A stretch of DNA of 54,704 nt from Candidatus Tyrphobacter aquilonaris (GTDB lineage: Bacteria > Vulcanimicrobiota > Vulcanimicrobiia > Vulcanimicrobiales > Vulcanimicrobiaceae). A program made the translations under genes and the position numbers. This document shows, one piece after another, positions 36,234 through 38,770 of the stretch. The first letter of the stretch is position 1, and every line of letters begins with the position of its first letter. The stretch is taken from positions 1,886 through 56,589 of the forward strand of contig PKZD01000034.1 in NCBI GenBank assembly GCA_003133745.1, read 5' to 3'. Below the pieces are notes generated by a model, which was not told the DNA's origin, searched no databases, and worked only from the letters and a program-made list of their open reading frames with translations.

Positions 36234-37097
36234 TCATTCTAGCGGCGGCGGAGTCCGGCGTGAACCGATCACCGTCGCGTCCCCCGCGAGCGCCGAGGCG
36301 ATCGTCTCAGGCCTTGCGGCGCAGATATATGCGGCGATCGCACCGCCGGCGACCGCGTCGGCGGCGGCATCGAGCTTCGGTTTCATGCTCGATCGGCAGG
36401 CATCGCTCACCGCGAACGCGCGGGCCTCGTCCGGCGTGAAGCGGTCGATCCCGGAGGCCGGATCGTCGGGATCGCGGAGCACGCGCGCGACGTTCGTCAC
36501 GACGACGAACGCCCGCGCACGCAGTGCCGCGGCAATCGCGGCGGCCGCAAGGTCCGCGTTGACGTTGTAGGCCTGCTTCCCATCTCGAGAGACGGCGAGC
36601 GGAGCGATGACGGGAATGCAACCGGCATCAAGGAGCGCGCGTACGACGTGCGGCGTGCATTCGACGATCTCCCCGACGAAGCCGAGATCGCTGCCACCGG
36701 CGCTTTGCAGCCTCCGGGCGATGAGCGTCGGGCCGTCCTGGCCGCTCATGCCGACCGCATGGATGCCGAGTGCGAGCGCCGCGCGCACGAGACGCTTGTT
36801 GAGCGTCGCGCAGAGCACGGCCTCCACGACCTCGAGCGTCGCCGCATCGGTGACGCGTTGGCCGTCGATTCGTTCCGTGGCAATGCCGTGCCGCTCGAGG
36901 GCGCGGTCGATCTCGGGGCCTCCGCCGTGAACGAGCACGATTTGTTCGCCTCGCTCGTGCAGCGCGGCAATCTCGGCAAGGAGCGGATCGGCGGCGCCGG
37001 CGCCGTCGAGCGCGGCGCCACCGTATTTTACGACGAGAATGGATTCACCACCGGGCCGGAGCCGAGTCTTTGGAAATCGCGAACATTTCTCGTGCAA
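36234..37097 (-). CDS. argB: acetylglutamate kinase
   Basis: ArgB phosphorylates N-acetylglutamate, the second step of arginine synthesis. Signatures are VVKYGGAAL at the start, VLVHGGGPEIDRAL in the nucleotide and substrate region, and a C-terminal GGSDLGFVGEI, then AYNVNADLAAAAIAAAL. The start is uncertain. A TTG at 37097 gives 287 residues, but its first 20 resemble nothing in the family. The only closer option is an ATT at 37040, just before VVKYGG and after a GGTGGTG. Either way the gene begins inside vapC, by 70 or 13 bases. It is on the opposite strand from the other arg genes. Confidence 0.9.
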   Translation of the reverse strand: MHEKCSRFPKTRLRPGGESILVVKYGGAALDGAGAADPLLAEIAALHERGEQIVLVHGGGPEIDRALERHGIATERIDGQRVTDAATLEVVEAVLCATLNKRLVRAALALGIHAVGMSGQDGPTLIARRLQSAGGSDLGFVGEIVECTPHVVRALLDAGCIPVIAPLAVSRDGKQAYNVNADLAAAAIAAALRARAFVVVTNVARVLRDPDDPASGIDRFTPDEARAFAVSDACRSSMKPKLDAAADAVAGGAIAAYICAARPETIASALAGDATVIGSRRTPPPLE

Positions 37098-37462
37098 ACC
37101 TGGAGATCGGCAACCTTGGCTGTAGCCGCGATTTGCGCAACGATGGCAAGCCGGCGTTCGTCGTCGCCGCGGAGGCCTTGCAAGATATGCCCCCACGTGA
37201 CCGCTGCTGCCGCACCGAACGGGAGAATGCGTTCGCCGAAGCGTTCCGGCAGCGCATGCTCCAGGAAGTGGCGTTGCATTACCATAGCGCGTCCCGCGGA
37301 TTGGGCACGGTCGATTCCCTTCGCGATCTCTCCCAGCGTGATCACGCTCAAGTGGAGGTCTCGCTCGTCTACTTTCTCGACCCACTCGCGCACTCCGCGA
37401 TCGCCTTTCTCGCCTTTGACCAGCTCGCTGACGACGTTCGTGTCGAGGAGCCAGCCGCTCAT
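37028..37462 (-). CDS. vapC: PIN-domain toxin, VapC family
   Basis: VapC toxins are ribonucleases that cleave tRNA or rRNA when not bound by antitoxin. The 144-residue protein has the PIN acidic residues: D7 in LLDTNVVSEL, E45 in TLGEIAKGI, and late residues in VCTRNVRDF. It ends with VVNPF, a typical VapC C-terminus, so the gene seems complete. The ATG at 37462 overlaps the antitoxin stop (ATGA). Its last codons overlap the start of argB in another frame, an unusual arrangement. Confidence 0.92.
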   Translation of the reverse strand: MSGWLLDTNVVSELVKGEKGDRGVREWVEKVDERDLHLSVITLGEIAKGIDRAQSAGRAMVMQRHFLEHALPERFGERILPFGAAAAVTWGHILQGLRGDDERRLAIVAQIAATAKVADLQVCTRNVRDFQRLGSGPVVNPFSS

Positions 37463-37701
37463 AACTCCGCGTCTCCTCGTTCGGCTGCCGAGATGCGACG
37501 GATCTCCACGTCCCCGAGGCCCGATCGAGCAAAGAAGCTGACCAGTGGTTCGACACGGTGATTCAATCTCTCGAACTCTTCTTGAGAGAGAACGACGGCC
37601 GAGCGGCGCCCCCGCTTTGTGATCGCCTGTGGGGCCCGGCGAGCTTCCTCCACCAATTCACTCAGACGATCTTTGGCTTCACGAATGGACCATTCACGCA
37701 T
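37459..37701 (-). CDS. Phd/YefM-family antitoxin
   Basis: The 80-residue product is a prevent-host-death type antitoxin. MREWSIREAKDRLSELVEEA forms the N-terminal DNA-binding part, ITKRGRRSAVVLSQEEFERL is conserved, and a variable C-terminal tail binds the toxin. It precedes the VapC-type toxin with a four-base overlap, the usual antitoxin-toxin order. A promoter at 37708-37735 places the transcript start at or near its ATG. An AATGGCCATT palindrome sits inside that promoter. Confidence 0.92.
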   Translation of the reverse strand: MREWSIREAKDRLSELVEEARRAPQAITKRGRRSAVVLSQEEFERLNHRVEPLVSFFARSGLGDVEIRRISAAERGDAEL

Positions 37702-37707
37702 GGAGCC

Positions 37708-37735
37708 ATCATAGCCCTAATGGCCATTGTGGCAA
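37708..37735 (-). promoter_or_regulatory. promoter of the toxin-antitoxin pair
   Basis: On the minus strand TTGCCA (37735-37730) and TATGAT (37713-37708) are 16 bases apart. The predicted transcript start is about base 37701, at the antitoxin ATG, so the message may lack a leader. Fit to the sigma70 consensus is good. Confidence 0.55.
37719..37728. promoter_or_regulatory. palindrome, probable toxin-antitoxin operator
   Basis: AATGGCCATT is a perfect ten-base palindrome between the -35 and -10 of the toxin-antitoxin promoter. Antitoxins of this family repress their own promoters by binding such sites, so it is a good operator candidate. Confidence 0.45.
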
Positions 37736-37757
37736 GCAAGGGCAGGGGCGAGGGGCC

Positions 37758-37790
37758 TTGCATAATAATGCGGTGTATGCATAAATATAC
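37758..37790 (+). promoter_or_regulatory. argF promoter with probable ArgR box
   Basis: TTGCAT at 37758-37763 is followed, after 17 to 18 bases, by ATAAAT/TAAATA at 37781-37787. Transcription would start next to the argF ATG at 37796. GTATGCATAAATATAC (37775-37790) has GTAT/ATAC arms around an AT-rich centre and resembles an ARG box. GCATAATAATGC (37760-37771) may be a second half of the operator. ArgR is encoded by the second gene of this operon. Confidence 0.45.
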
Positions 37791-37795
37791 CTACC

Positions 37796-38770
37796 ATGAT
37801 TGCTTTTGCAGCGGAGCCGGCGACCCTCTTCGGGCGGCATCTGCTCGAGGTCACGGACTTGAGCCGCGACGAGCTCGCGCGCCTGCTGCGCCTCGCGCAG
37901 TACCTCAAAGTCCAGGGGCGCGGCGAGCAGCGGACGCTCCTGCGCGACCGTACTCTCGCCATGCTTTTCGAAAAGCCGTCGCTGCGCACGCGAGTCTCCT
38001 TCGAGGTCGCGATGACGCAGTTGGGCGGCGAGGTGCTCTTCGCGCAGGGCGCGGAGTTCATGGTCGGCAGTCGTGAGTCGCCGGAAGACGCGGCGCGCAC
38101 CCTCTCGCGCTACGTGGACGTGATCGCGGTGCGTACGCACGCGCACGAGCCGCTGCAGCGCTTCGCGCACGCCTCGACCGTTCCCGTGATCAATGCGCTC
38201 TCCGCGCGCGCGCATCCGTGTCAGGCGATCGCCGACGTTCTGACGATGCGCGAACGCTTCGGCGACGTGGCGGGTTTGCGCATCGCTTACGTCGGCGATG
38301 CGCGGAACAACGTCGCGGCCTCGCTCGCGGAGGCTGCGGTCACCCTCGGCGCCACCGTACAGTTCGGCTGTCCGCCGACGCACCGTCCGTCGGAATCGTA
38401 CCTTGCGAAGCTCGACGCGCTCGGCGAGAGCAGCGGCGGCGCGACGCGCGCGTTCAGCAATGCGGTGCGCGCGGTTCGCGGAGCGGACGTCGTTTACACC
38501 GACGTGTGGACGTCGATGGGAGAGGAGCGGTACCGCGAGCGCAACGACGCGATGCTCCGGCCGTACGCCGTCACGGAAGAACTCTTCGCCTTTGCGAAGC
38601 CGAACGCGATCTTCATGCACTGCCTGCCCGCGCACCGCGGCGAGGAGGTCGTTGCGGGCGTGATCGACGGGCCGCGCAGCGCAGTCTTCGATCAAGCCGA
38701 GAACCGCATGCACGCGCAAAAGGCTCTGCTGCTCGCATTGCTCACCGAACTGAAAGGGCTGCCCATATGA
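37796..38770 (+). CDS. argF: ornithine carbamoyltransferase
   Basis: ArgF makes citrulline from ornithine and carbamoyl phosphate. The 324-residue enzyme has the carbamoyl-phosphate motif FEKPSLRTRVSFE, then HPCQAIADVLTM, a TDVWTSMGEE segment, and the ornithine-site FMHCLPAHRGEEV. It starts at ATG 37796 with no Shine-Dalgarno sequence and a promoter so close that the message may be leaderless. It leads the operon argF-argR-argG-argH-argC-argJ-argD. Its TGA overlaps the argR ATG. Confidence 0.96.
   Translation: MIAFAAEPATLFGRHLLEVTDLSRDELARLLRLAQYLKVQGRGEQRTLLRDRTLAMLFEKPSLRTRVSFEVAMTQLGGEVLFAQGAEFMVGSRESPEDAARTLSRYVDVIAVRTHAHEPLQRFAHASTVPVINALSARAHPCQAIADVLTMRERFGDVAGLRIAYVGDARNNVAASLAEAAVTLGATVQFGCPPTHRPSESYLAKLDALGESSGGATRAFSNAVRAVRGADVVYTDVWTSMGEERYRERNDAMLRPYAVTEELFAFAKPNAIFMHCLPAHRGEEVVAGVIDGPRSAVFDQAENRMHAQKALLLALLTELKGLPI

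What the first reader, a model, noticed from the sequence alone, without database searches (positions are those of the whole stretch)
37028..37097. argB starts inside a vapC toxin gene in another frame
The VapC C-terminus is intact and reads through the region encoding the first residues of ArgB (VVKYGG). No ATG, GTG or TTG lies near the expected ArgB N-terminus. The only choices are a TTG 57 bases upstream giving an odd extension, or an ATT just before the conserved strand. This would tie an essential biosynthetic enzyme to expression of a toxin-antitoxin pair, which could make the module hard to lose.
Basis: partly seen in the sequence, partly recalled or inferred. Interest (0 to 1): 0.6.

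Follow-up and report, generated by a model that had tools for sequence, protein, structure and literature searches.

The report
Toxin-antitoxin pair inserted inside argB's start
In this uncultured bacterium a two-gene toxin-antitoxin cassette landed inside the first codons of the arginine gene argB, so the enzyme's old start was cut off and its translation must now begin, probably from an unusual codon, inside the toxin gene, whose own active site looks broken.

Summary
ArgB's reading frame enters vapC with no ATG/GTG/TTG closer than a TTG 57 bases upstream of an ATT, and vapC's TAA stop is made of argB's Val-Lys codons. Relatives explain it. All 7 held congeners have argB and argF head to head without vapBC, and 66 of 68 family argB loci have a standard start within 19 codons of the invariant Lys. 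In the window the ancestral argB 5' end (two ARG-box-like palindromes, ATG, about 11 codons) still sits beside argF, cut off by a vapBC insertion of about 715 bp with CTCG at both junctions. The flanks match 47/47 and 45/47 relatives; the inserted edges match 0/47 and 2/47. ArgB is undamaged, is the only argB found, and the arginine pathway is otherwise present. Most likely start: ATT (37040-37038), behind GGTGGTGA, coupled to vapC translation (inferred). The module would be held by captured start signals, not by poison. A new variant of a known kind (TA insertion).

The parts
36234..37040 (-). argB body, counted from the ATT; no standard start codon at its 5' end
   Evidence: TIGR00761 207.8 bits, cut-off 151.3; 0 departures at columns conserved in at least 97% of the other 67 family members
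37038..37040 (-). ATT, proposed start codon of argB, 4 codons before the invariant Lys
   Evidence: sequence; inferred from position, not shown
37045..37052 (-). GGTGGTGA, Shine-Dalgarno-like, made of VapC's Val-Val-Asn codons
   Evidence: duplex energy -6.4 against -2.2 for the TTG; 48 of 516 positions in the stretch do as well
37095..37097 (-). TTG, alternative start of argB, 23 codons before the Lys
37028..37462 (-). vapC, PIN toxin; its stop (37030-37028) lies in argB's Val-Lys codons
   Evidence: PF01850 E 5e-10; sequence
37139..37141 (-). vapC codon 108, GTT (Val) in place of the catalytic Asp
   Evidence: 30 of 32 homologs Asp; aligned to FitB D104 and Shigella VapC D98
37459..37701 (-). 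vapB, Phd/YefM antitoxin; its stop overlaps the vapC ATG (ATGA)
   Evidence: PF02604 E 8.7e-13
37708..37735 (-). promoter-like site of the insert, TTGCCA-16-TATGAT
   Evidence: 1 found in the region, shuffles mean 0.2; a consensus match only
37034..37037 (-). CTCG at the right junction (argB body side)
37749..37752 (-). CTCG at the left junction (argF side)
37717..37782 (-). orphaned old argB 5' end: ATG and about 11 codons, then inserted DNA up to a TAG
   Evidence: left flank matches 47 of 47 relatives above shuffles
37759..37791 (.). two ARG-box-like palindromes shared by argF and the old argB (name recalled)
   Evidence: 2 matches to TGCATAATTATGCA with up to 3 mismatches in the whole window, 0.22 expected
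37796..38770 (+). argF, divergent neighbour
   Evidence: NF001986 387.5 bits, TIGR00658 363 bits, both over cut-off

Best explanation
A vapBC cassette of about 715 bp, with its own promoter-like site, inserted inside the 5' coding end of argB after about codon 11, at a CTCG, by a short target duplication or microhomology. It left argB's old start and operator beside argF. The two genes exchanged end signals: vapC stops in argB's Val-Lys codons and argB must start inside vapC. Most likely, ribosomes translating vapC open the structured junction and initiate again at ATT 37040, placed 7 bases after the GGTGG of GGTGGTGA, giving fMet-Leu-Val-Val-Lys. VapC has lost a catalytic Asp, so the pair is held by argB's need for this DNA rather than by toxicity. 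Shown: the insertion relative to relatives, an intact ArgB frame, Val108, the absence of a near standard start. Inferred: use of ATT, coupling, loss of toxicity.
For: No vapC hit in any of the congeners' argB loci, which have argB and argF head to head. Breakpoints map to about 37758-37741 and 37043-37033 for most of 14 relatives. Left flank above shuffles in 47 of 47 relatives, right flank in 45 of 47, insert edges in 0 and 2 of 47. Lower G+C of vapB and vapC (0.588, 0.614) than argB and argF (0.696, 0.678). ArgB undamaged, pathway present. 30 of 68 family loci have a standard start 4 or 5 codons before the Lys, the length an ATT start gives. L087 independently lacks any usable standard start. 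infC ATT and sigR GTC are documented non-standard starts (PMC5472188, passages).
Against: No expression data. The Shine-Dalgarno match is not exceptional (48 of 516 positions as good) and is mostly paired in the naked RNA. A TTG exists upstream. The insertion may be too recent for decay of argB to show. L039 of the same genus also has Val at that VapC position, so a variant active site is not excluded.
Confidence: 0.58

Rival explanations
1. Same insertion, but ArgB starts at TTG 37097 inside vapC, with an N-terminal extension of 19 residues.
For: TTG is a standard start and the frame is open from it.
Against: Weak Shine-Dalgarno (-2.2); the extension is VapC's DNA read in another frame; no family locus needs a start more than 19 codons from the Lys except the window.
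Confidence: 0.22
2. argB was silenced by a recent insertion, and the cell lives on outside arginine or the assembly caught a minority variant.
For: No near standard start; the start is cut off; there is one genome of the species and no reads.
Against: No stop, no frameshift, 0 departures at conserved columns; the other arginine genes are present.
Confidence: 0.13
3. One reading: an active toxin-antitoxin pair that addicts the cell and is tied to argB.
For: Both genes are open, with ATGA overlap and a promoter-like site.
Against: Val108 in place of the catalytic Asp.
Confidence: 0.04
4. Assembly chimera: vapBC from elsewhere joined wrongly between argF and argB.
For: A metagenome-type assembly in 82 contigs; no reads available.
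Against: Two clean junctions on one 68-kb contig whose flanks rebuild the relatives' argB; vapC occurs once in the genome.
Confidence: 0.03

Closest known systems
Chromosomal TA insertions between operon genes of E. coli: ccd in the folA-apaH interval, TA pairs in relA-mazG (PMC7167474, passages)
   Same: A TA pair absent from relatives sits between two ordinary genes, at a place that also takes small repeats
   Different: There the insertions are described as intergenic; here the insertion lies inside the first codons of a gene, takes its start away and shares end signals with it
VapBC type II toxin-antitoxin (VapC1 of H. influenzae, FitB, Shigella VapC)
   Same: PIN toxin after a small DNA-binding-type antitoxin, overlapping genes
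   Different: Catalytic Asp replaced by Val; a biosynthetic gene must start within vapC
Non-standard start codons: infC (ATT) and sigR (GTC) (PMC5472188, passages)
   Same: No standard start at the proper place; a purine-rich site in front (for sigR an AGGAGGTG that itself contains the misannotated GTG)
   Different: Here the start is only inferred and arose by insertion of another module

Membership tests
VapBC type II toxin-antitoxin | PIN-domain toxin | tested here: met
   PF01850 40.5 bits, cut-off 23.6
VapBC type II toxin-antitoxin | small antitoxin gene directly upstream, overlapping | tested here: met
   PF02604 48.3 bits, cut-off 29.8; ATGA overlap
VapBC type II toxin-antitoxin | conserved catalytic acids of the PIN active site | tested here: not met
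   D7 and E45 kept, D108 replaced by V. I therefore file it as VapBC-derived, probably disarmed
VapBC type II toxin-antitoxin | toxicity neutralised by VapB | not testable with these tools
   needs expression in a laboratory strain
tRNA(fMet)-specific VapC | passes the curated family model | tested here: not met
   NF047863 49.2 bits, cut-off 140; NF010285 24.6 bits, cut-off 143
Acetylglutamate kinase ArgB | passes TIGR00761 and keeps the invariant residues | tested here: met
   207.8 bits, cut-off 151.3; all 30 invariant columns and 0 departures at columns conserved in at least 97% of the others
Genes with a non-standard start (infC/sigR-like) | no ATG/GTG/TTG at the conserved 5' end | tested here: met
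   nearest is a TTG 23 codons before the Lys
Genes with a non-standard start (infC/sigR-like) | ribosome-binding site in front of the proposed codon | tested here: inconclusive
   GGTGGTGA, -6.4, matched by 48 of 516 background positions
Genes with a non-standard start (infC/sigR-like) | initiation at that codon shown by experiment | not testable with these tools
   needs N-terminal peptides or start mutagenesis

The most novel reading that the evidence does not exclude
Start-signal capture as a way to keep a TA module: a disarmed vapBC is held because the enzyme gene it broke now uses the toxin gene's Val-Val-Asn codons as ribosome-binding site and an ATT as start, so that argB output is set jointly by ArgR, by VapBC autoregulation and by IF3-limited initiation.
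Probability: 0.3. Interest if true: 0.7.

Novelty: new variant of a known kind. Interest (0 to 1): 0.5.

Why it matters
How chromosomal TA modules move and integrate is called unelucidated in a review (PMC7167474, passage), and why they persist is debated (my knowledge). Here both junctions can be read against the empty site of relatives: the module broke into a biosynthetic gene, the two genes now share start and stop signals, and the toxin looks disarmed. Persistence without toxicity, through dependence of a neighbour's translation, can be tested directly with reporters. It is also a warning for annotation: a caller limited to ATG, GTG and TTG would give argB a wrong start or a 440-codon frame.

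Tried and rejected
Second argB elsewhere: none above cut-off. Programmed frameshift fusing VapC to ArgB: looked at by eye, no slippery heptamer seen before the stop; not computed. A tRNA(fMet)-cutting VapC that stimulates initiation at elongator codons (described for enteric VapC in PMC3905216, passage; the original paper is not held): attractive for an ATT start, but the family models score far below cut-off and the active site is broken; I give it a few percent. Donor of the module: best homologs 40-44% identical, none near. The genome's own 16S 3' end: not found (one search gave the 5' half; one search found the CCTCC tail in 1 of 8 genus genomes, G004). Literature: the searches listed nothing, judged by titles and starts of abstracts, on a TA module inserted in argB or supplying a gene's start; the library lacks most subscription journals, so this is weak evidence of absence.

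Rows dropped. One search used 32 homologs from fetched loci only; one search listed more matches than were fetched, L037 fell outside the E cut-off, and L001 and L003 are copies of the window; L034 and L049 look like the same gene. One search aligned 14 relatives; its breakpoints tie over several bases, L019 gave no sensible breakpoint, and L008 and L010 gave shifted ones. One search kept the 47 relatives with the argB Lys 40-160 nt from argF's start; the others (no argF on the stretch, larger distance, or, as computed there, L010) were left out. One search examined 71 loci, of which 68 are of the family (window included).

Full report
What is there. On the minus strand vapB (37701-37459), vapC (37462-37028) and argB (stop at 36234) follow one another; argF (37796) points the other way. 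VapB is a Phd/YefM antitoxin and VapC a PIN protein. ArgB passes its family cut-off and is the only argB to do so in the held genome. The ArgB frame runs open into vapC. Before the invariant Lys of KYGG the codons are GGT GGT GAA TCC ATT CTC GTC GTA; the nearest standard starts are a TTG at 23 and a GTG at 56 codons. vapC's TAA is formed by bases of argB's GTA AAA.

Where it comes from. The seven congeners G001-G007 have argB and argF head to head, with no vapC hit between. The interval carries two palindromes like TGCATAATTATGCA, which I read as ARG boxes (name recalled; argR is the gene after argF). In many relatives the argB frame has an ATG or GTG at the first box or between the two and reads through the second. 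In the window that sequence is still beside argF: ATG CAT ACA CCG CAT TAT TAT GCA AGG CCC CTC, then foreign DNA; the argB body resumes about 715 bases on, at CTC GTC GTA AAA. A split alignment puts the breakpoints there for most of 14 relatives. Control: the 49-base left flank scores above shuffles (p <= 0.01) in 47 of 47 relatives and the 38-base right flank in 45 of 47, while the insert's two edges do so in 0 and 2 of 47. CTCG stands at both junctions, as a short target duplication or microhomology would leave it. The insert has lower G+C than its neighbours and a promoter-like site of its own.

An insertion-prone site. The same place, between the second box and the argB body, holds short extra stretches that look like dispersed repeats in L016, L069, L084 and L087 (read by eye). 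A review says the same of E. coli TA sites: REP sequences can occupy the folA-apaH interval that carries ccd (PMC7167474, passages).

Is ArgB working? Its sequence shows no damage: 0 departures at columns conserved in at least 97% of the other 67 family members, against 0-2 in congeners. argF, argR, argG, argH and argC, argJ and argD are present. This argues for use but cannot exclude a recent knock-out.

How would it start? 30 of 68 family loci have a standard start 4 or 5 codons before the Lys, so fMet-Leu-Val-Val-Lys from the ATT would have a normal length. GGTGGTGA lies at a suitable distance; its duplex energy (-6.4) beats that before the TTG (-2.2) and the GTG (-2.3), but 48 of 516 positions in the stretch do as well. 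In the naked RNA these bases are mostly paired, so ribosomes translating vapC would help; that is inference. The CCTCC tail of 16S rRNA was seen in one congener only. L087 gives an independent case: between its in-frame stop and the argB Lys there is no ATG, GTG or TTG except a GTG directly before the Lys, and a CTG stands where L083, L084 and L086 have TTG. infC (ATT) and sigR (GTC) are documented non-standard starts repressed by IF3 (PMC5472188, passages).

Is the toxin live? Residue 108 is Val (GTT); 30 of 32 homologs have Asp, L039 of the same genus has Val and L066 has Gln. The position aligns with FitB D104 and Shigella VapC D98. In H. influenzae VapC1 the equivalent D99 is required: D99G came out of a screen for non-toxic mutants, and D99N is non-toxic but still forms a complex with VapB1 that binds the promoter (PMC4229260, passages). 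So this VapC is probably not toxic but may still regulate. Because vapC must be read through to reach argB, a harmless VapC would be favoured whenever argB has to be made in quantity; that is speculation.

Host. L034, from a record titled Candidatus Eremiobacterota palsa_1484, has the same VapC sequence and downstream DNA as L049 of G078, a genome of the window's family. The host is therefore probably an Eremiobacterota bacterium.

Verdict. Observation confirmed; interpretation half right. The tie between argB and the module is real in the DNA, but it seems to rest on captured signals, not on a live toxin.

Noticed in passing
L087 (G077:C1:753700-756600), argB 5' end: An argB without a usable ATG, GTG or TTG: in-frame stop 10 codons before the Lys, and a CTG where close relatives have TTG; an extra repeat-like stretch lies just upstream.
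   Followed up: partly
L016, L069, L084, L087: between the second ARG-like box and the argB body: Short extra stretches that look like dispersed repeats at the same site where vapBC sits in the window.
   Followed up: partly
L008 and L010, argB codons just after KYGGAAL: In-frame extra stretches of roughly 20-30 residues in a loop of ArgB, which look like translated repeats.
   Followed up: no
L039 (G002:C81:13100-13519), same genus: A VapC 41% identical to the window's that also has Val at the catalytic Asp position.
   Followed up: no
window 37776-37774 (-): ACA stands where many relatives have a second start codon between the two boxes; it may be decay after the insertion.
   Followed up: no
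window 37782-37717 (-): The orphaned argB start now opens a 21-codon frame that ends 15 bases before vapB's ATG and could act as a leader.
   Followed up: no
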